In this document: in pieces, positions 2,822 to 12,626 of the stretch
How positions within the stretch are numbered: the first letter of the stretch is position 1
Layout: each line of letters begins with the position of its first letter
DNA from: Chloroflexota bacterium
GTDB taxonomy: Bacteria > Chloroflexota > Dehalococcoidia > DSGV01
Direction: 5' to 3'
NCBI GenBank assembly: GCA_021787985.1
Contig: JAJYLG010000031.1
Span: 1 to 33,841, forward strand
Length of the DNA: 33,841 bases
Notes under the pieces: model-generated
Database searches by the model: none
Told to the model about the DNA's origin: nothing
Seen by the model: only the letters and a program-made list of their open reading frames with translations
Position numbers and translations under genes: made by a program

Positions 2822-3787
2822 GTGACGAGGCTTGGGGAACGCATGCCACCTCTGCCGACTGATGAAGCGGCCAGTGGTGAGATGGTCGCGGCATACCATA
2901 CGCGCTACGGCCAAATGGTGCAGGGGAGCGCCGAACAGGTGCTTAGGGCCGAGGCCACCACCATGTACAGGGGCAGGGTGCAATTGATCTTCACCTCGCC
3001 CCCGTTTCCCCTGAATCGCAAGAAGAAGTATGGGAATCACCGGGGGGACGCGTATGTGACGTGGTTCGCCTCCTTCGCGGAGACGTTTCGTGAGTTCCTC
3101 ACAGCTGACGGGTCGATCGTTGTGGAGCTTGGTAATGCGTGGGTGCAGGGCCGGCCGGTGATGTCGACACTGGCGCTGAAGGCGTTGCTCGCCTTTCTCG
3201 ACAGGGGCCGGCTTCACCTGTGCCAGCAGTTCATCTGCTACAACCGGGCCAGGCTGCCCACGCCGGCGCAGTGGGTGAACGTGGAGCGGATTCGGGTCAA
3301 GGATTCGTACACGCACGTGTGGTGGATGGCGCCAAGCGAGCGGCCGAAGGCGGACAACCGGCGGGTTCTGAAGCCGTACAGCGCCGCGATGCGCAGGTTA
3401 TTGCAGACCCAGAAATACAACTCGGGGAAACGCCCTTCCGAGCACGACATCGGCACAGAGTCCTTCCTAACCGATAACGGAGGAGCGATTCCATCAAACG
3501 TGCTGGAGTTCGCCAATACGAGTGCGAGCGACCCATACCAAGAATACTGCCGCAAGCACGAGCTGTCTCTTCACCCGGCTAGGATGCCGCTGGGGCTTGC
3601 TGAGTTCTTCATCAGGTTCCTCACGGAGCCAGGCGATCTTGTGCTGGATCCGTTCGCCGGAAGCAACACGACCGGCGCAGCGGCGGAGCGGTTGGCGCGG
3701 CGGTGGCTAGCGATCGAGCCGCGGGAGGACTACATCCGCGGGTCGGTCGGCCGATTTGGCGACGGCGTCACGGTCGCGTGGTTGTAG
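2822..3787 (+). CDS. Beta-class amino-methyltransferase (N4-cytosine or N6-adenine) of the DISARM operon
   Basis: This is a 321-residue site-specific DNA methyltransferase that would mark host DNA as self. The catalytic motif IV, TSPPF, is at 58-62, and the SAM-binding motif I, DPFAGSNTT, is near the C-terminus at 276-284. This order (IV before I) defines the beta class. The middle holds the ERIRVKDSYTHVWWM and NRRVLKPYS segments typical of stand-alone type II-like enzymes. TSPP[FY] is more common in N4-cytosine enzymes, but the base cannot be assigned securely. GTG 2822 is the longest start; ATG 2843, preceded by TTGGGGAA, is a good alternative. The gene lies 14 bp before the DrmE-like gene, in one operon. 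Classical DISARM types use a large adenine enzyme (type 1) or a C5-cytosine enzyme (type 2), so this one is atypical. Confidence 0.85.
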   Translation: MTRLGERMPPLPTDEAASGEMVAAYHTRYGQMVQGSAEQVLRAEATTMYRGRVQLIFTSPPFPLNRKKKYGNHRGDAYVTWFASFAETFREFLTADGSIVVELGNAWVQGRPVMSTLALKALLAFLDRGRLHLCQQFICYNRARLPTPAQWVNVERIRVKDSYTHVWWMAPSERPKADNRRVLKPYSAAMRRLLQTQKYNSGKRPSEHDIGTESFLTDNGGAIPSNVLEFANTSASDPYQEYCRKHELSLHPARMPLGLAEFFIRFLTEPGDLVLDPFAGSNTTGAAAERLARRWLAIEPREDYIRGSVGRFGDGVTVAWL

Positions 3788-3801
3788 ACGCAGAGGCACG
3801 C

Positions 3802-6414
3802 ATGCACATGGCGGGGGAGTCAGAACATCTAGTGGCACGACTGCGGAAACTGGTGGATCTGAGTCCATACCAGCCGGCTAATGGTGGCCCCGCTTGGTTG
3901 TGCGAGCTTGGGACGGCTGCTGCCAGTGACGGGGGTGCGCTCGCCCTGCTGGGGCCGAAGGGGATCGGCGTGGCCACGGAGGACAATCGACGGGTGCGGG
4001 CGATGCCGGATCCACCGGGAGTCTTGCTCGCCGGGCTTGCCGGGCGTGTACGACGAAGGAGAGAGCGAGTCGCCGTCGGCCTACCGCCTGCCGCGCGACA
4101 CTTACCGCTGCTGCTGGCGAGTTCGGCCGTCCTGTCCGACACCCTGGCCTTGCCAGCGGGGACAGCCCCCGGATTCCGCAGAGGCGTTCTAGTGATCAGC
4201 CCCGACCTGGAAATGCGCAGCCGTTACTGTGACCTCTACGTAGGGAACGTTCCGCTGGACTCGGCAAAGCCGGGAACGCGAATGAAGCCGAATGGTGAGT
4301 TGGTGCCGCTGCGGCCGGACAAGGCCAAAGCGGGCGATGGCGGCGTCTGCTTCTTCCTCCCTCTGCTGGCGCTCCCGGACCGGGTAGCCTATGCTCCGGC
4401 GCTAGTAGTCCTCGATCTGCGCTACGCCCAGTGGGTGCGGCGGGTAGCTGCGCTCGCCCAATGGGCGAGGGAGGTCGGTAAGGAGGCCGGAGTGCTCGCG
4501 CTCTACACAGTGGGCGACAGCGAGACGCTGACTGCACTCACGGATGCCGGCTTCGCTGATCTGCCGCTGGACCATGAGGCAATCGCGACCTGCACGAAGG
4601 GGATGAAGAGAGCGGCGACGCCAGTCACGGGTACCCTGGACTGGTCGCTTGCACCTGCACCGTCTTATCTCGCGCGGGAGCACGAGGTCAAGGAACTGCC
4701 GCATGGCGAGAGCTTGGACGAGGCGTTCAAGGGAATTGCCGCGCTGCTAGACGAGTACCGGGAAGTCGACAGTCTCGATGTGCGCCGCGCCCGCTGGCTG
4801 CTCGCCATCCTCACCCAGATGCCTGTGCCACTGGACTGGTATGAACGGGCGGCCAGGGATTCCGGACGTTCTACGCTGCGGCGGCTGATCGAGCGGCTCG
4901 GCATCCTCGACCGAGACGGGCGCGTGCCGGGGGCGGTGACAGGAACGCTACGAATGAACTTCGAGCGCGTCTACCGTGCACTCGAGGGCACCAATCCGCG
5001 CGCGGAGATGTTGAGAGCGGTCCTGCCGGAGGTGGCGGAAGCCAAACCGGACGACAGGGTGCTGCTGCTGGTCCGACACCGGACGATGGAGCGGGCCGTG
5101 CGGGCCTGGCTGATGCTGGACGCCTTTGCCGGGTGTGACTGGCTCACGGGCGTGGACATCGTGGCCTGTGCGGATTACGCGAGGGTGGCGGAGCGCCGGT
5201 ATGCAACGGCGATCGTCAACGGCGCGCTTCCCCGCCGGTACCGGTGGATCCTCGGTGGCGCGCTTGCAGCGCAGGTGATCTACTTAGCGTATCCGTATGA
5301 GGTGGATGGGATTGAGCGTCAGCTGCAGAGCGTCTATGGGGAGGAGGCGCGCGAGGCCCGCGCCAGGAGGCGTCATACAACCGTGACCGGCGGCGAGAAC
5401 GCGGCTGATGGAGCCGGGCAGGGCGCGGAAGCAGCCGTGCCGGAACTCATCCTGAGGCGGCCGGCGCGACCTGCTCCAGAGACCAGAGGGCGCCAGGACC
5501 AGCCGGAGCGGACGCTGCACGGGTTCAAGGGACTCGCTCAGGCGTTGGAGGAATTGAGTCGGAGCGCAAAGCCGCCGAGCTCGGCAGAGGATCTGGCCGT
5601 GTGGGAGCACGATCCCGGCGAGGATGACCCGCCTGGCGATGACGATGTTGACCTCGACGACGTGGCAGTCGCGGAGCGGGTAGAGTGTCTGCGCGCGGAC
5701 GTGGAATCGCGCCTGCACGGGAAGGGCTTGGTGTGGCTGCCAGTGGCCGGCCTGATCGAGGTGGCACGGCCGGAGACAGGGGACGACATCCCGCTGCTTC
5801 GTGCGGACGAGCTACGGGCTGGTGACGTAATTGTCTGCCTAGACGCGGATGGCCGGTCGGGGTTGTTCGAGCGGATGGTGGAGCTCGCGGCTGACCAGCC
5901 TGAGATGCGCTCCCTTGCGACCTTGCGTCGGCGCTGGCTGGATGCTATGCAAGGCCTCGTGGCGCGGTTTCAACAGGACGGTAGGGTCAATTACGCGGCG
6001 CTGCTGCGGGCGTTGCAGGCAAACGGGGCGACGATCACGAGTGAGCTGACCGTGCGGATGTGGATTCTGGGCCAGGCTATCGGCCCGGAGGATCGATCCT
6101 CGATCGTCGCCGTGGGCAAGGTGGTCGGATCTGACGCGCTAGTGCAGCACGCGCGTGAGCTAGACAAGGCCTTCCGGCGGATTCGAGGTATTCGTCAGGG
6201 GATCGGCCGGCGCTTGAGCGGAGTGATTCGCAGGACGTTCCAACACGTGGCCGCAGGTGTGGACGAACAGGCGGCCGCGCAGCTCGAGGACCGTCTCAGC
6301 CTGCCGCTGAACGAGCTGTTGGAGACCATTGATCTCGTCAGGGTAGTGAAGGTGAGCGGCGAGACGCGCCCGGTGCCACCCCAGTGGATGCGGCGGTGGC
6401 GGCCCGCCAGCTAG
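3802..6414 (+). CDS. drmE: DISARM DrmE-like protein
   Basis: This is a large protein of about 870 residues with no enzymatic motif that I can recognise. It is called DrmE from its position before drmA, its size and two segments that fit what I remember of the family. One is around 417-480 (VLLLVRHRTMERAVRAWL, then AIVNGALPRRYRWI). The other is a C-terminal block (about 740-820) with ALQANGATITSELTVRMW, GQAIGPEDRSSIVAVG and FRRIRGIRQGIGRRLS. DrmE is the signature subunit of type 2 DISARM and was reported as required for defence there. A strongly acidic linker (EHDPGEDDPPGDDDVDLDD) sits around 600-620. The frame is open from 3703, but that overlaps the methyltransferase end, so ATG 3802 (or 3808) is preferred. 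It ends 9 nt before drmA. The DrmE call rests on pattern memory and context. Confidence 0.65.
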   Translation: MHMAGESEHLVARLRKLVDLSPYQPANGGPAWLCELGTAAASDGGALALLGPKGIGVATEDNRRVRAMPDPPGVLLAGLAGRVRRRRERVAVGLPPAARHLPLLLASSAVLSDTLALPAGTAPGFRRGVLVISPDLEMRSRYCDLYVGNVPLDSAKPGTRMKPNGELVPLRPDKAKAGDGGVCFFLPLLALPDRVAYAPALVVLDLRYAQWVRRVAALAQWAREVGKEAGVLALYTVGDSETLTALTDAGFADLPLDHEAIATCTKGMKRAATPVTGTLDWSLAPAPSYLAREHEVKELPHGESLDEAFKGIAALLDEYREVDSLDVRRARWLLAILTQMPVPLDWYERAARDSGRSTLRRLIERLGILDRDGRVPGAVTGTLRMNFERVYRALEGTNPRAEMLRAVLPEVAEAKPDDRVLLLVRHRTMERAVRAWLMLDAFAGCDWLTGVDIVACADYARVAERRYATAIVNGALPRRYRWILGGALAAQVIYLAYPYEVDGIERQLQSVYGEEAREARARRRHTTVTGGENAADGAGQGAEAAVPELILRRPARPAPETRGRQDQPERTLHGFKGLAQALEELSRSAKPPSSAEDLAVWEHDPGEDDPPGDDDVDLDDVAVAERVECLRADVESRLHGKGLVWLPVAGLIEVARPETGDDIPLLRADELRAGDVIVCLDADGRSGLFERMVELAADQPEMRSLATLRRRWLDAMQGLVARFQQDGRVNYAALLRALQANGATITSELTVRMWILGQAIGPEDRSSIVAVGKVVGSDALVQHARELDKAFRRIRGIRQGIGRRLSGVIRRTFQHVAAGVDEQAAAQLEDRLSLPLNELLETIDLVRVVKVSGETRPVPPQWMRRWRPAS

Positions 6415-6423
6415 GAGGTTGTG

Positions 6424-9400
6424 GTGGCTGACGCGCAGGCAAGCAGGATCACCGAGGACGACAAACTGCTGCTGGCGGAGTACCTGCTGGACCGGGTACT
6501 GACCGGCTTGAGCGGCCGGGATGGCGAGGATCTTGTTGACATGACGCCGACGCGGACGATCTTCGCCGGCGTGCTCTCGCTGCCCCGAGCGGCGGAGGTG
6601 GAGGCCGCGCGACGGGGGCTCGCGATCGGTGACGCGCCAGCCGGGACGTCGATGGGGCTGGACTTCCGTGTGCGGCCTACGGGCCGGCTCGGCACGGTGC
6701 GGCTGCGGATCGCGCCGCGCTGGAGCCATTACTACCCGGTGTTCCCCACCTGGGAGCAGGCTGTTCGCGCTAATGAGGGAACGATACAGGCAGCAGGCGC
6801 AGAAGTGGGGATGATAGGCGAGGACGACGGGGGAGAACTCGCGCTGCTCGACGGGGGTGTGGGCACGGACACCGATGGGGCTGGGGCAGAAGTGGGGGAG
6901 GAAACCGACGAGCAGGCAGGTGGGCCAGCGCAGAGTCAACCGGGGCAGGCCGTGTTGCCGCGCGTATGGCGACGGCGCGATGTCACAGTAGATGAGATCC
7001 AGGTCGATCTGCCGCCTGATCAGACAATCGTAGCCCCTCTCGGTGCGCGGGAGATCGCGTTGGGGATCGACGAGGCCAGCGTAGCGATGGTGGCGGATCC
7101 GAACGGATGGCGGCACCTCGGGGATCCGAAGCAGCGGCAGCGTTCGTTGGGAGACGCGGGCGTGCTTGCCAGTGAGCGGGCATACGCGAGCGCGCTGACG
7201 CGTGTGCAGGGAGAGCGGGCGCCGCTGCCGCCCTGGTCGGCCAGTGTGCAGGTGGAGTCAAGCCCGGACCCGACCGCACCCAACGTACTACGGGTGCGGG
7301 TGCTGCTGGCGAACACCACGCCGGAGTTGCGGTTGTACGGGTCTGATCGGGAGACCGATGAGATCGACCCTTGGTTGCAGGAACGACCACTGTTCGACGC
7401 CGGGCTGGCGGTTGAAGTTGAGGGCGGCGAGGTGGTTCCGTTCGACTTCCTACTCGCGCCGAAGGACTACCGGACGAACCCGCAGATGGTTGCGAAGGGG
7501 ATCAACTGCGTGGCGCGGCGGAGCGAGGCGGCAAGCGGGCGGCTGGAGACTGAGACCTTGCCCGTCTTTCGCCAGCCGTTGTACAGGACGCGAGATGACC
7601 TGGAAGTGCCGTTTGGGAGTTTGGACGGAGCGGATCCTGTCCCGCAACTGGAACGGATCGCGGCGGCGATGGATGAGTACCTGCAGACGTGGGACAGGTT
7701 CTTGGCCGTGGAGGCGCCGCAGCGGTTTGGCGACGCAGAGATCGAGGCGTGCAGTTCGGATCGAGAGCAGTTTCGACGTGAGATTGAGCGCTACCGGCTT
7801 GGTGTCGAGACGCTTCGGCGAGACCCCGGGCTGGTGGAGGCCTTCCGCCTAATGAATCGGGCGTTCGGCCGGCTGGCGGCGCGGTCGCGCGGGCGTATGC
7901 GGGCCTGGCGGCTCTTCCAGATCGGGTTCATTGTTTCGCAACTGTCGGCGCTCGCGGTACGCGAGTTGGGGACTGACGAGTCGGGGGAGTACGCGGGGGC
8001 GCTGCGAGCTTCGTTCAGTGACGTGGGCGTGCTGTGGTTTCCGACCGGGGGTGGCAAGACAGAGGCATATCTGGGGCTGATCGCGACTGCGCTCCTATAT
8101 GACCGGCTGCGCGGGAAGCAGCGGGGCGTGTGCGCCTGGATGCGGTTTCCGCTGCGGATGCTGTCGCTCCAACAGTTAGAGCGATTGGCCCGCGTCATCG
8201 CGGCGCTAAATGAGCTGCGAGCAGAGGAACCGCGGGTGCAGGCGGGTGACCCGTTCGCGATCGGGTATTACGTGGGGAGCACCAACACACCGAATAGGCT
8301 CGACCGGCACGCGATGGACCGTTTCAAGCAACGGGAGGATCTGCGCGAGGAAGTACGCCTGCTTCGCAAATGCCCGTTCTGCGGGAACCCCGTGGACATC
8401 AAGCCCGACGAGCATACCTGGCGGCTGGCGCATGTGTGCCGCAGCGCGGACTGCTTCTCAAATACGTCTGCGAGCATGGGACCGTACAGGGGCGCGCTAC
8501 CGGTATGCGTCGTCGACTATGAGATCTACCGATATCTGCCATCGGTCCTCGTTGGGACGGTAGACAAGCTGGCCATCGCTGGCCGCAACCGGTACTTTGC
8601 GCACCTCACGCGGGGTGTGTCGCAGCAGTGCCCCGCGCACGGCTACACCTCGTACGACGAGTGCATGGAGCAGGGGGAGCGCTGGGGCGGCTGCAAGGCG
8701 AAGAAGAGCGATCTGCTGAAGGTCTCGGTGTTCAAGGATCCGGGCCTGTCGCTGCTGATCCAGGACGAGCTGCACTTGCTGCGTGACGAGCTGGGCGTGT
8801 TCAGTGGGCACTATGAGGGACTGCTGCATTACCTTGGGGCGAAGGCACATCTGCCGGCTAAGGTCCTAGCGGCGACGGCGACGATCGAGGCATACGATGT
8901 ACAGGCGTTTCACATCTATCTTAGCCGGGCGTGCCGGTACCCGCAGCCAGCGTGGGAGCAGGGCGAATCGTTCTATGCCACCAGCCGGCCGGCGCGACAG
9001 CGACGCCTGTATGCCGGTGTGTTGGGACACACGCGGGCGATCGAGGAGCCGGCTTTGCGGGTGCTGGCGCTGTACCAGCGGGAGATACGCCGGCTGAAAG
9101 CCGACCCCCATCGAGCGGCGGAGATCATGCAGCGCAGAGATGCGTCAACTGAGGCGATACTCGATACCGTTCGGCTGTACGATCTGTCACTGGCATATGT
9201 GAATCGTAAGGCGACCGGTGGCAGCATCGCGGACAAGGTGGGGGCCCAGGTCGATCGGCTGCTGGCGCCAGAAGATCTGGGCACGGTGCAGGCACGCTTA
9301 CTCACCGGCGACCAAACACTGGACGCGGTTGGGGCGACGCTAGAGCGGATCGAGCGGGAGCGCGAGGAGACCGGCGAGTCCCGACTGGACCTAGTGATCG

Positions 9401-10086
9401 CCACCAACCTTATCAGCCACGGGGTCGATCTTGAGCGTATCAACATGATGAGCGTGTGCGGCATGCCATCGCACTATGCCGAATACGTCCAATCGACCAG
9501 CCGGGCGGCGCGCACCCATCCGGGGCTGGTGTTCGTGTGCTTTCGGGCACGTGACCCGCGGGAGGCCTCGCAATACGAGTTCTTCCCGGCAATGCACGAG
9601 CACATGGAGCGGCTGATCGAGGCCGTAGCAGTGAATCGGTTCGCGTCGTTCGCGCCTGAGAAGACCGTACCGGGCCTCCTCGCCGCCGTGCTGCTGCATG
9701 ACCTGGGCCCCGACCTCTTCTCCGCGCGGCAGATTGCGAAAGCGCTGGACCATGTGCCGACGCTCCTAACGGCACTTGGGAAACGGCCGAGGGACAAGGC
9801 GGGGACGGTCGTCAAGTGCATCGAAGAGGGAGACTTGCTCGACGCGCTCAACCGTATCGTCGGCGTGGACGATGTGCGCCCACCAGCGTCGCCGGCGCAA
9901 GTGCGAAATGTGAGCGAGAAGATCGCCCAGGTCTTCGAAGACCGGATGGGCGCGATCAAGCGCGCGGACGAGACATGGCTGAGCGACGTGCTCGATCCCC
10001 TGACATCGTTTCGTGACGTGGATGAGGGGATTGAGTTTGGGAGCTTGGATTCGGCCGCGCTCGTGGACCGCATTCGGGGAAGGTAA
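6424..10086 (+). CDS. drmA: DISARM helicase DrmA (superfamily 2)
   Basis: This 1,220-residue helicase is one half of the DrmA-DrmB DNA-engaging complex. The Walker A motif PTGGGKT is at 540-546, the Walker B/DEAH-type box is DELH at 781-784, and motif III is ATAT near 817. Motif V (ATNLISHGVDLERI) is near 990 and motif VI (QSTSRAAR) near 1023. Between motifs I and II a zinc-binding insert carries CPFC near 650 and two further cysteines near 670-675. The first 500 residues are accessory and include an acidic, Gly-rich low-complexity stretch at about 120-170. GTG 6424 is preferred because AGGAGG (6413-6418) sits 5 nt before it; GTG 6421 is too close. The AGGAGG overlaps the drmE stop, suggesting coupled translation. 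DrmA is known as an essential DISARM component that binds DNA with DrmB. Confidence 0.87.
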   Translation: MADAQASRITEDDKLLLAEYLLDRVLTGLSGRDGEDLVDMTPTRTIFAGVLSLPRAAEVEAARRGLAIGDAPAGTSMGLDFRVRPTGRLGTVRLRIAPRWSHYYPVFPTWEQAVRANEGTIQAAGAEVGMIGEDDGGELALLDGGVGTDTDGAGAEVGEETDEQAGGPAQSQPGQAVLPRVWRRRDVTVDEIQVDLPPDQTIVAPLGAREIALGIDEASVAMVADPNGWRHLGDPKQRQRSLGDAGVLASERAYASALTRVQGERAPLPPWSASVQVESSPDPTAPNVLRVRVLLANTTPELRLYGSDRETDEIDPWLQERPLFDAGLAVEVEGGEVVPFDFLLAPKDYRTNPQMVAKGINCVARRSEAASGRLETETLPVFRQPLYRTRDDLEVPFGSLDGADPVPQLERIAAAMDEYLQTWDRFLAVEAPQRFGDAEIEACSSDREQFRREIERYRLGVETLRRDPGLVEAFRLMNRAFGRLAARSRGRMRAWRLFQIGFIVSQLSALAVRELGTDESGEYAGALRASFSDVGVLWFPTGGGKTEAYLGLIATALLYDRLRGKQRGVCAWMRFPLRMLSLQQLERLARVIAALNELRAEEPRVQAGDPFAIGYYVGSTNTPNRLDRHAMDRFKQREDLREEVRLLRKCPFCGNPVDIKPDEHTWRLAHVCRSADCFSNTSASMGPYRGALPVCVVDYEIYRYLPSVLVGTVDKLAIAGRNRYFAHLTRGVSQQCPAHGYTSYDECMEQGERWGGCKAKKSDLLKVSVFKDPGLSLLIQDELHLLRDELGVFSGHYEGLLHYLGAKAHLPAKVLAATATIEAYDVQAFHIYLSRACRYPQPAWEQGESFYATSRPARQRRLYAGVLGHTRAIEEPALRVLALYQREIRRLKADPHRAAEIMQRRDASTEAILDTVRLYDLSLAYVNRKATGGSIADKVGAQVDRLLAPEDLGTVQARLLTGDQTLDAVGATLERIEREREETGESRLDLVIATNLISHGVDLERINMMSVCGMPSHYAEYVQSTSRAARTHPGLVFVCFRARDPREASQYEFFPAMHEHMERLIEAVAVNRFASFAPEKTVPGLLAAVLLHDLGPDLFSARQIAKALDHVPTLLTALGKRPRDKAGTVVKCIEEGDLLDALNRIVGVDDVRPPASPAQVRNVSEKIAQVFEDRMGAIKRADETWLSDVLDPLTSFRDVDEGIEFGSLDSAALVDRIRGR

Positions 10087-10094
10087 GGGGCCAG

Positions 10095-12065
10095 ATGGAC
10101 GATGTGATGCGCCGAGGACGCTCGCAGACGATCTGGCGATACGCGCCTGGTGCCGCGTTCCGGTATGCGGAAAGCGGCGCCTGGTGCCAAACGACGGGCA
10201 TCACGCTGCGCGACCCGAAGCGCCTGCAGGGCGCGCTGGCCGAGGCGGTGCGGCAGGCGCTGCTGCGCTGGATAGCAGTCGCCCCGGCTGGAGCATTCCC
10301 GGACCCCGGGACACATCCTGCCAAGTATGCCGTGGGGACGCCGTACCAGGTGACGTACCAACTGTGGCCGCTGGTTTTCACCTGTCGGCAGTGTGGGCGG
10401 CTGCATTATTACCAGACCCGGGAAAACCTGAAACGATCGAATGAGGCGCTCGGCTGCGACAGCTGCAGGGGCCGCGACCTCCTGCGTCAGGTGCCGTACG
10501 CCTTCGTGTGCGAGTGCGGGCGGCTCGACACCGTCTTTGCGCCCAGCCACCCACGCGATCACCCGATCACGCTCGTCAATAAGGGCAACTTCCAAGAGTC
10601 GTACTGGTACTGCACTGTCTGCAAGCGCTCGCTGGCGCGCATACCGCGGGAGGGACTCGGTTTCCGTCGCTGCGAGTGCGCGCCGGGGAAAATGAAGCGG
10701 GGGATCCTCATCGAGGACGGGCGGGTCTACTATTCGCAGACCATCGACCTAGTGGACGTAGAGCCGAAGACACTTGATCCGTGGCGGGATAATGCGGGGT
10801 TCTCCGATCTGCTGCTTGGCGCGGTGCTCGGTATTCCTGCATATCGGCCCAGCCACATCCAGGACCTGGCGAGCAGACAGCCCGGAGACCACGAGCTCTC
10901 GCCCGAGTTGCGAGCGATGCGCGAGGAGCTGATTGCGGGGGGCATGGCCGCAGAGCAGGCCGAGGCGATGGTCCGGCGCGTAGCGGGCCGCGCCGGGGCT
11001 GACGCCTGGACCGCGTATGAAACGGAGCTAGCGCCCTATCGCGGCTGGGTGGGCGGGTATGACTGGAAGAGCCAGCGGCGGACCGTGGAGTACGTGTTCG
11101 TCCGTGATGACCCGAGCACGGCCGCGATCGCGCTCGACCAGCTGATTTGTGAGGCGCGCGATTACGGCGACGAAGGTACGGCAGAGCGACTCGAGCGCGA
11201 GCGCGAGATCGCCAGGCAGATAGGATTGATCAACCTGCGGGTGGTCCAGGCGCTGCCAGTACTGCTTGCAGGCATCGGGTACACGCGATACAAGCAGAGC
11301 CCGGGCGATATCGATGATGGTGATACTGCGTCGAGTGGTCCACCGGCAGCGTTGCGACCCTACCGCGAGCAGGATGGGAAGATCCCGATCTATGTCGCCC
11401 GTAACGAGACGGAGGCGCTGCTGTATGAGGTCGACCCTTGGCGGCTTGCGGCGTTTCTGTCGCTGAACACCGGCACGGCAGTACCGCAGGAGGCCATAGC
11501 CTCAACGTGGGCCGTCCGGGCCTGGCTGCTGGGGCGATGGGGGAGGCTGGTGGAGCGCGGCGAGTCTCACCTGGTGCTGCAGTCCTGGGAGGTCGATGCT
11601 GGACAGACGGTGGACCAGCCATCGGCGCTCGTGTTCGGTGTATTGCACACACTCTCACACGTATTGAAGGCGACAGCCCACCGCTATGTGGGTGTTGATG
11701 CCGACTCGCTGGCGGAGTACCTGTTCCCGGCGCACGCGACGGGCCTGCTCTATGCCTCCTCGCAGGTGGAGTTCACGCTGGGTGGCATCGACGCGGTGTT
11801 CCGATCAAACCTGACGCAGTGGCTCGGCTCGGCAAGGGACTACGCGGGGCGCTGCTCGTTCGATCCAGTGTGCGAGCGGAGCGGTGGAGCCTGCCTCGCC
11901 TGTCTATATCCCAAGTTCGGCTGTGGATACTTCAAGCGGACGGTGAGCCGGGCGTTCCTGCTCGGCGGAAGCATCGCGGGCCGCAGCGCGCGGCTGGAGG
12001 GTTTCTGGTCGGCGCGCGTGGCGCAGGCGACGCACGAGCTCCGCGCTCGCAAGGGCGGTGGATGA
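10095..12065 (+). CDS. drmB: DISARM protein DrmB (DUF1998)
   Basis: This 656-residue partner of DrmA opens with RRGRSQTIWRYAPGAAFRY, similar to the Q-x-I-x-x-Y-x-P-G-A start of DrmB and other DUF1998 proteins. It has several Cys pairs that probably bind zinc: CRQC near 96, CDSC near 121, CEC near 139, CTVC near 173 and CEC near 194. The C-terminal DUF1998 domain has LHTLSHVL near 518 and a Cys-rich block at about 586-615 (CSFDPVC, CLAC, GCGYFKR). In characterised DISARM, DrmB associates with the DrmA helicase to form the DNA-binding core and is needed for protection. The gene starts 8 nt after drmA with AAGGGG just upstream, and ends directly against the drmC start. Domain order and length look complete. 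Confidence 0.87.
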   Translation: MDDVMRRGRSQTIWRYAPGAAFRYAESGAWCQTTGITLRDPKRLQGALAEAVRQALLRWIAVAPAGAFPDPGTHPAKYAVGTPYQVTYQLWPLVFTCRQCGRLHYYQTRENLKRSNEALGCDSCRGRDLLRQVPYAFVCECGRLDTVFAPSHPRDHPITLVNKGNFQESYWYCTVCKRSLARIPREGLGFRRCECAPGKMKRGILIEDGRVYYSQTIDLVDVEPKTLDPWRDNAGFSDLLLGAVLGIPAYRPSHIQDLASRQPGDHELSPELRAMREELIAGGMAAEQAEAMVRRVAGRAGADAWTAYETELAPYRGWVGGYDWKSQRRTVEYVFVRDDPSTAAIALDQLICEARDYGDEGTAERLEREREIARQIGLINLRVVQALPVLLAGIGYTRYKQSPGDIDDGDTASSGPPAALRPYREQDGKIPIYVARNETEALLYEVDPWRLAAFLSLNTGTAVPQEAIASTWAVRAWLLGRWGRLVERGESHLVLQSWEVDAGQTVDQPSALVFGVLHTLSHVLKATAHRYVGVDADSLAEYLFPAHATGLLYASSQVEFTLGGIDAVFRSNLTQWLGSARDYAGRCSFDPVCERSGGACLACLYPKFGCGYFKRTVSRAFLLGGSIAGRSARLEGFWSARVAQATHELRARKGGG

Positions 12066-12626
12066 TTGAAGAACGAAGCTTGTCCGCCCGTTGTTTACTT
12101 GACGCCCGGACACCGGCGGCTGTTGCCGCCCGACCTGCGAGGGCGATTTCGGGACCTGGACCAATTCGTGCGGGACCTGGTCTCATCGGCAACACAGCGG
12201 CTGCTGATCGTGTCGCCGTATCTGGGTCCGGCCGGGATGACGATGCTCCGCGGGGCGATGGCCGTTTCGGCGGAGCAAGGGGCATGGATTCGATTTGTTA
12301 CCGGGGATCTGGCCGACGTGGAAGGGGCAAACCGGCAGGCGCTGGCGGTGCTGGTCCGGGGCGTGGAGGGGAGACTCATTCGCCAGCGGCTGCGGGTACT
12401 CACGAGTTCCACGGAGTTCCCGGTCCTGCTTCACGCCAAGATCGTGGTAGCCGACGGCAGGCGAGGATATCTCGGCTCGGCGAATCTGTCAGGGCGCGCG
12501 CTGGATGAGAACTTCGAGGTGGGCACTGCGCTGGCGGCGAATCAGGCGAAGTCTCTCGATGACTTGGTAGCGTATCTGGAAGCTCAGGGCCTTCTCGTGG
12601 ACCGAACCGATGCGGTCTTCGGCTAG
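12066..12626 (+). CDS. drmC: DISARM protein DrmC (phospholipase D-like nuclease fold)
   Basis: This 186-residue protein has a single, complete HKD motif: H123, K125, D130 and GSAN 137-140, matching HxKx4Dx6GSxN. PLD-fold proteins of this size act as dimers in which two HKD motifs make one active site; in defence systems they are usually nucleases. In DISARM, DrmC was reported to be less critical than the other subunits. The frame starts with TTG 12066, right after the drmB stop, so translation is probably coupled; no later start fits as well. Everything expected is intact. It closes the operon, and the next 260 bases before the right flanking repeat hold no gene. Confidence 0.82.
   Translation: MKNEACPPVVYLTPGHRRLLPPDLRGRFRDLDQFVRDLVSSATQRLLIVSPYLGPAGMTMLRGAMAVSAEQGAWIRFVTGDLADVEGANRQALAVLVRGVEGRLIRQRLRVLTSSTEFPVLLHAKIVVADGRRGYLGSANLSGRALDENFEVGTALAANQAKSLDDLVAYLEAQGLLVDRTDAVFG

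What the first reader, a model, noticed from the sequence alone, without database searches (positions are those of the whole stretch)
2822..12626. DISARM system with a mixed composition: DrmE plus a beta-class amino-methyltransferase
The sequence shows five closely packed genes: a beta-class DNA methyltransferase (TSPPF before DPFAGSNTT), a large DrmE-like protein, DrmA helicase, DrmB (DUF1998) and DrmC (HKD). As described, type 1 DISARM uses DrmD plus a large N6-adenine methylase, and type 2 uses DrmE plus a C5-cytosine methylase. This operon has the type 2 core with neither usual methylase, and the methylase gene is first rather than last. It may be an undescribed subtype with another self-mark (N4-methylcytosine or N6-methyladenine).
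Basis: partly seen in the sequence, partly recalled or inferred. Interest (0 to 1): 0.85.

Follow-up and report, generated by a model that had tools for sequence, protein, structure and literature searches.

The report
DISARM variant with PvuII-type N4-cytosine methylase
A five-gene bacterial anti-virus operon of the DISARM type carries an unusual self-marking enzyme, a relative of the PvuII N4-cytosine methylase, and comparison with related operons suggests that this marking gene is an exchangeable part of such systems.

Summary
Window 2822-12626 holds five packed co-directional genes: methyltransferase, DrmE-family protein, DrmA helicase, DrmB, and a short PLD protein (DrmC). The methyltransferase is a PvuII-family beta-class enzyme (full-length match to M.PvuII, PDB 1boo, 257 bits), so N4-methylcytosine is the likely mark. 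No DrmMI, DrmMII or DrmD was found. DrmE passes the broad NCBIfam DrmE_fam cut-off but fails the strict DISARM_DrmE one.

The gene set is not unique. Lysinibacillus sp. ZYM-1 has drmE-A-B-C followed by a PvuII-family methylase; Ferroacidibacillus organovorans very probably has the same, across a contig break. The three DrmA proteins form one supported clade (98/98). Their methylases do not (one clade rejected), implying separate recruitment or replacement. Other DrmE-type loci carry C5 methylases, PglX-like amino-methylases, or no recognised methylase. Methylase-first order also occurs with C5 enzymes, so it is not diagnostic.

This is a new variant of class 2 DISARM, best read as modular exchange of the self-mark. 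Side results: DrmE models resemble RIG-I-like/Hef SF2 helicases without a Walker A lysine; the host genome has a separate PvuII-type R-M and strong CAGCTG avoidance.

The parts
2822..3787 (+). PvuII-family beta-class DNA methyltransferase (321 aa from GTG 2822; an ATG at 2843 is an alternative start); predicted N4-cytosine self-mark
   Evidence: 1boo M.PvuII 257 bits over residues 24-314; Pfam N6_N4_Mtase; TSPPF ... DPFAGSNTT
3802..6414 (+). DrmE-family protein, 870 aa from ATG 3802 (ORF opens at 3703); predicted degenerate SF2 helicase fold without a Walker A lysine
   Evidence: NCBIfam DrmE_fam 128.8 vs 80, Pfam DrmE_C 73.3 vs 27; AF2 model (mean pLDDT 61.9) matches RIG-I/Hef helicases, Foldseek E 5e-9
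6421..10086 (+). DrmA, SF2 (YprA-family) helicase, 1221 aa
   Evidence: PADLOC DrmA 385.6 bits, NCBIfam DrmAS 372 bits (below the strict cut-off of 950); helicase motifs conserved
10095..12065 (+). DrmB, DUF1998/MZB zinc-binding partner of DrmA, 656 aa
   Evidence: PADLOC DrmB 91.3 bits; weak MZB; Cys cluster 587-610
12066..12626 (+). DrmC, short PLD-family nuclease, 186 aa, one HKD motif (TTG start)
   Evidence: PADLOC DrmC 54.4, NCBIfam DrmC_I 60.9 (cut-off 133), Pfam PLDc_2; HKD intact, and similarly short DrmC in L019, L043, L063

Best explanation
This is a class 2-like (DrmE-containing) DISARM operon in which the usual C5-cytosine methylase is replaced by a PvuII-family N4-cytosine methylase. 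Proposed working: the methylase marks a short palindrome in the host genome. The DrmA-DrmB helicase complex engages incoming DNA at ends or 5' overhangs and is activated less by marked DNA. DrmE, a helicase-like protein without a functional ATP site, acts as a DNA-binding or regulatory partner, and DrmC contributes nuclease activity. The marking enzyme is an exchangeable module: different DISARM core lineages have acquired C5, PglX-like or PvuII-family methylases. Shown here: gene content, homology, clade structure, and the non-orthologous origin of the methylases. Inferred: the N4mC product, methylation sensing by this DrmAB, the roles of DrmE and DrmC, and anti-phage activity.
For: Gene content and profiles. 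M.PvuII match over nearly the full length. Independent loci with the same composition: Lysinibacillus L034 drmE-A-B-C-MTase and Ferroacidibacillus, where L035 ends inside drmA and L153 starts inside drmA and runs drmB-drmC-MTase-C5 MTase. DrmA tree: these three as one clade 98/98; DrmB 89/89; DrmE SH-aLRT 94. In 400 same-phylum genomes the methylase family is common (31 genomes), yet none of the other methylase neighbourhoods read there had Drm genes, so the pairing is not explained by the family simply being everywhere. Published class 1 biochemistry: DrmAB ATPase is lower on methylated DNA (PMC9142583).
Against: DrmA, DrmB, DrmC and DrmE all fall below NCBIfam's strict cut-offs. The three methylases are not one clade (p-AU 9e-80), so long co-inheritance of one methylase with the core is excluded and chance neighbourhood is harder to rule out for any single locus. 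Support for the three-locus clade is below the starred level in the DrmB and DrmE trees. Base and site of methylation are not measured. The genome has another, closer M.PvuII homologue.
Confidence: 0.66

Rival explanations
1. The methylase is not part of the DISARM. It is a solitary or hitch-hiking PvuII-family methylase that happens to precede drmE, and the core works without it, as in the DrmE-type loci with no recognised methylase.
For: Several DrmE-type loci lack a recognised methylase. PvuII-family methylases are common and often stand apart from DISARM. The three DISARM-linked methylases are not one clade.
Against: Same strand, 14 bp from drmE, in an operon-like array. The association recurs at two further loci of the same core clade. 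The slot is filled by some recognised methylase in 17 of 28 loci in the tree.
Confidence: 0.15
2. The mark is N6-methyladenine rather than N4-methylcytosine: the enzyme is a beta-class adenine methylase with an N4C-like motif.
For: Beta-class enzymes include both types; weak secondary matches to CcrM, MboIIA and DpnA. Sequence alone does not fix the target base.
Against: The best match by far is M.PvuII (257 bits; next 46), over nearly the whole chain, with the same TSPPF motif IV.
Confidence: 0.1
3. The methylase mainly shields the operon from the resident PvuII-type restriction enzyme: the element entered a CAGCTG-restricting genome carrying its own CAGCTG methylase.
For: The genome has an R.PvuII homologue beside an M.PvuII homologue and CAGCTG is depleted about 7-fold (23 seen, 165.5 expected). 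The operon itself holds four CAGCTG sites, close to the undepleted density, as expected of recent arrival.
Against: The resident M.PvuII homologue would be expected to methylate the operon after entry. PvuII-family methylases also accompany DISARM in Lysinibacillus and Ferroacidibacillus, where no R.PvuII homologue was found (a negative without a positive control) and CAGCTG is not clearly avoided. The window methylase lies on a branch away from M.PvuII.
Confidence: 0.05
4. The operon is decayed: the short DrmC and low-scoring DrmB and DrmE mark an inactive system.
For: DrmC is 186 aa against about 285 in the two sister loci; all Drm scores are below strict cut-offs.
Against: All five frames are open; the HKD, DELH and helicase motifs are intact; similarly short DrmC proteins occur in an independent clade (L019, L043, L063).
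Confidence: 0.06

Closest known systems
DISARM class 2 (DrmA, DrmB, DrmC, DrmE, DrmMII)
   Same: Same core: DrmE-family protein, DrmA, DrmB, DrmC in one operon
   Different: PvuII-family N4C-type methylase instead of C5 DrmMII; members below strict model cut-offs; would not satisfy PADLOC's published type II definition (PMC9252829)
DISARM class 1 (DrmD, DrmMI, DrmA, DrmB, DrmC)
   Same: An amino-methylase rather than a C5 one; shared DrmA, DrmB, DrmC
   Different: No DrmD, no large DrmMI; DrmE present, which PADLOC prohibits in type I
PvuII restriction-modification (M.PvuII)
   Same: The methylase is homologous to M.PvuII over nearly its full length
   Different: No R.PvuII or C protein recognised beside it; a separate branch of the methylase tree; the PvuII-type R-M of this genome lies on another contig
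Lysinibacillus sp. ZYM-1 and Ferroacidibacillus organovorans DISARM loci (L034, L035/L153)
   Same: DrmE core plus PvuII-family methylase; one DrmA clade with the window, 98/98
   Different: Methylase after drmC, from another methylase branch; an extra C5 methylase in Ferroacidibacillus

Membership tests
DISARM class 2 | DrmA helicase and DrmB (DUF1998) | tested here: met
   PADLOC DrmA 385.6 bits, DrmB 91.3 bits; below NCBIfam strict cut-offs
DISARM class 2 | DrmC PLD protein | tested here: met
   PADLOC DrmC 54.4 bits, HKD intact, but only 186 aa
DISARM class 2 | DrmE | tested here: met
   DrmE_fam 128.8 vs 80 and DrmE_C 73.3 vs 27 pass; strict DISARM_DrmE fails, 40.7 vs 250
DISARM class 2 | DrmMII C5-cytosine methylase | tested here: not met
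   The methylase is PF01555 / M.PvuII-like; no C5 methylase hit in the operon or in the ten flanking ORFs scanned with PADLOC. So: a variant, not a canonical member
DISARM class 1 | DrmD and DrmMI | tested here: not met
   No DrmD or DrmMI hit listed among the operon proteins or ten flanking ORFs
DISARM (function) | Anti-phage activity dependent on the operon | not testable with these tools
   Needs cloning and phage challenge
PvuII R-M | M.PvuII-like methylase | tested here: met
   1boo 257 bits
PvuII R-M | Adjacent R.PvuII-like endonuclease | tested here: inconclusive
   No PADLOC hit in flanking ORFs that would mark one, but no direct R.PvuII search of the window was made; the genome's own R.PvuII homologue is on contig C15
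PvuII R-M | Specificity CAGCTG for this methylase | not testable with these tools
   Homology suggests it, but the enzyme is on a separate branch; genome CAGCTG avoidance is explained by the other R-M
ARMADA / Druantia / Dpd | System-specific partners (BrxHII- or PglX-like genes, deazaguanine genes, YprA helicase and DUF1998 in one gene) | tested here: not met
   DrmA and DrmB are separate genes and DrmE is present; features of the other systems taken from PMC12458937

The most novel reading that the evidence does not exclude
DrmE-type DISARM is a chassis that senses absence of modification in a way tolerant of chemistry (5mC, N4mC, amino-methylation by PglX-like enzymes), so that methylases of unrelated families can be swapped in as self-marks, and one core lineage has taken PvuII-family N4C methylases at least twice. 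DrmE would be a dead RIG-I/Hef-like helicase that reads duplex DNA.
Probability: 0.35. Interest if true: 0.72.

Novelty: new variant of a known kind. Interest (0 to 1): 0.52.

Why it matters
How DISARM tells self from non-self is unresolved. Class 1 data point to a single base contact by DrmA (PMC9142583). If one core clade works with N4-methylcytosine and its sisters with 5-methylcytosine or amino-methylation by PglX-like enzymes, sensing is either tolerant of chemistry or retuned each time; swapping methylases between matched cores would separate the two. The sister loci also score below strict models and one DrmE had no PADLOC hit, so defence surveys probably undercount such systems.

Tried and rejected
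A first genome-contig scan with DrmE found nothing; DrmE is too divergent, so DrmA was used. No close relative of the operon in 100 relatives or in 400 same-phylum genomes. DrmE gave no match in plasmids. A search of 398 genomes in the phylum of Ferroacidibacillus with its DrmE gave only three weak hits beyond itself. CAGCTG avoidance as a sign of DISARM methylase specificity was rejected: it is strong in this genome but absent in Lysinibacillus and weak in Ferroacidibacillus, and a PvuII R-M accounts for it. The claim 'methylase first is special' was rejected. Co-inheritance of one methylase with the core was rejected. The original DISARM paper could not be read.
Full report
Observation. The window contains five closely spaced + strand ORFs at 2822-12626. 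The 321-residue first protein has TSPPF before DPFAGSNTT. Profile searches give a PF01555 DNA methylase, DrmE_C and DrmE_fam for the second protein, and DrmA, DrmB and DrmC for the rest. The DrmE protein passes the DrmE_fam cut-off (128.8 vs 80) and fails the stricter DISARM_DrmE (40.7 vs 250). DrmA, DrmB and DrmC are likewise real but divergent. Operon proteins and ten flanking ORFs gave no listed DrmD, DrmMI or DrmMII match.

The methylase. Against solved structures the best match is M.PvuII, the N4-cytosine methylase (1boo), 257 bits over residues 24-314; the next is 46 bits. That makes an N4mC mark likely but not proven.

Is the gene set unique? A scan with a DrmA alignment gave 80 loci. 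Labelling their neighbours showed that DrmE-type loci carry several kinds of methylase: C5 enzymes (for example L018, L052, L057, L066), large PglX/HmaB-like amino-methylases (L023, L024, L040, L041, L045, L046, L086), or no recognised methylase. Five of the last kind (L019, L043, L044, L048, L063) have a GNAT-ABC ATPase just upstream, weakly similar to MADS mad3 in the four scanned with PADLOC. One locus, Lysinibacillus sp. ZYM-1, has drmE-A-B-C followed by a PvuII-family methylase (353.5 bits to the same PADLOC profile as the window's). A contig end cuts Ferroacidibacillus organovorans drmA; searching that genome found a second contig that begins with a DrmA C-terminus and continues drmB, drmC, PvuII-family methylase, C5 methylase. 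The two DrmA pieces align to window residues 14-969 and 989-1204, so they are very probably one gene; the join is inferred.

Trees. In a careful DrmA tree of 28 DrmE-type loci the window, Lysinibacillus and Ferroacidibacillus form one clade, 98/98; the five ATPase loci form another at 100/100; PglX-like and C5 labels are spread over several clades. An earlier quick DrmA tree with three more loci placed the same three together at SH-aLRT 92. The careful tree left out three long or distant rows (L021, L072, L074). DrmB (89/89) and DrmE (94) agree without reaching the starred level. The methylase tree disagrees: the window enzyme sits with L155, L157 and a plasmid enzyme of Aurantiacibacter, while the two Bacillota enzymes pair together on the M.PvuII side; holding all three together is rejected (p-AU 9e-80). 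The simplest reading is that this core lineage took PvuII-family methylases more than once, or replaced one by another. L035 was relabelled as PvuII-type after its methylase was found and before the careful tree was run; the tree itself uses only DrmA.

Background rate. PvuII-family methylases occur in 31 of 400 same-phylum genomes. Of the 20 neighbourhoods fetched, one (L161) showed no methylase in my ORF calls; among the rest only the Ferroacidibacillus one, fetched for that reason, has Drm genes, though several stretches were short and the display was limited to about five genes on each side. I therefore treat the pairing in the window as meaningful rather than accidental, with the recurrence in the sister loci as the main argument.

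DrmE. AlphaFold2 models of the window DrmE (mean pLDDT 61.9) and of the Ferroacidibacillus DrmE (65.4) both match RIG-I-like receptors and related SF2 helicases (Foldseek E down to 5e-9 and 6e-10; Hef among the matches of the first). TM-scores are low (0.13-0.30 by query) and the models are mediocre, so the domain arrangement is not established. The motif I region has a near-invariant Pro (P128) but no GKT, and the motif II region keeps an Asp (D238) without the following Glu. I read DrmE as a helicase-like protein without a working ATP site; this is inference.

Host genome. The same genome carries, at the edge of contig C15, an R.PvuII homologue (114 bits to the duplicated chain 3ksk, 57 to single-chain PvuII) next to a methylase closer to M.PvuII (395 bits) than the window's. 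In 326 kb sampled, CAGCTG occurs 23 times against 165.5 expected, the most depleted of 52 palindromes. Lysinibacillus (131 vs 128) shows no depletion and Ferroacidibacillus only a weak one (37 vs 50.5). The DISARM operon holds four CAGCTG sites where 0.52 are expected at the depleted rate (P about 0.002, a test chosen after seeing the sites) and 5.0 at the undepleted rate, and its G+C is 0.64-0.67 against 0.70. This fits a recent arrival. It does not tell the specificity of the DISARM methylase.

Known work. PADLOC defines type I by DrmA, B, C, D, MI with DrmE prohibited, and type II by DrmA, B, C, E, MII (PMC9252829). A cryo-EM study of DISARM shows reduced DrmAB ATPase on methylated DNA (PMC9142583). 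A 2025 preprint on YprA helicases states that many uncharacterised DISARM-like classes exist (PMC12458937); a 2024 paper lists a class 2 DISARM with a generic MTase_II in archaeal proviruses (PMC11705971). In the papers searched I found no description of a PvuII-family methylase in DISARM; the library lacks the founding paper.

Verdict. A real DISARM operon of the DrmE class with a non-canonical methylase, a new variant of a known kind. The wider point, that the marking gene is an exchangeable module, is supported by the survey and trees. Function is untested.

Noticed in passing
G000 contig C15:1-1346 (L154): A PvuII-type R-M: R.PvuII homologue (cut by the contig end) overlapping tail-to-tail with an M.PvuII homologue of 395 bits.
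   Followed up: yes
G000, 326 kb sampled (window, L154, L178-L197): CAGCTG depleted about 7-fold (23 vs 165.5), most of 52 palindromes; GAGCTC also low (167 vs 268.8), unexplained.
   Followed up: partly
L019:6265-8427, L043:745-2997, L044:5565-7433, L048:4469-6382, L063:5298-7394: A DISARM clade (100/100) with no recognised methylase and a GNAT plus ABC-ATPase protein (mad3-like where scanned) directly upstream of drmE.
   Followed up: partly
L030:7944-13631 (Aurantiacibacter plasmid): A methylase about 52-54% identical to the window's, followed by a DEAD/DEAH helicase, a small 'DNA modification system-associated' protein and an AAA ATPase: a possible other defence system.
   Followed up: no
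L023:3843-5930, L024:3610-5547, L041:3715-5802: PglX-like amino-methylases next to drmE in Streptomyces and Rubrobacter; DrmE of L023 and L024 has no PADLOC hit.
   Followed up: partly
L018:11324-12049: A 241-residue protein between the C5 methylase and drmE in G059; by eye it looks like an endonuclease III/MutY-type glycosylase (no profile search made).
   Followed up: no
L155:6522-8897: A 791-residue protein, by eye a GHKL-type ATPase, beside the closest relative of the window methylase.
   Followed up: no
window 3802-6414 and L035:7198-9984: Both DrmE models match RIG-I-like/Hef SF2 helicases, without a Walker A lysine.
   Followed up: partly
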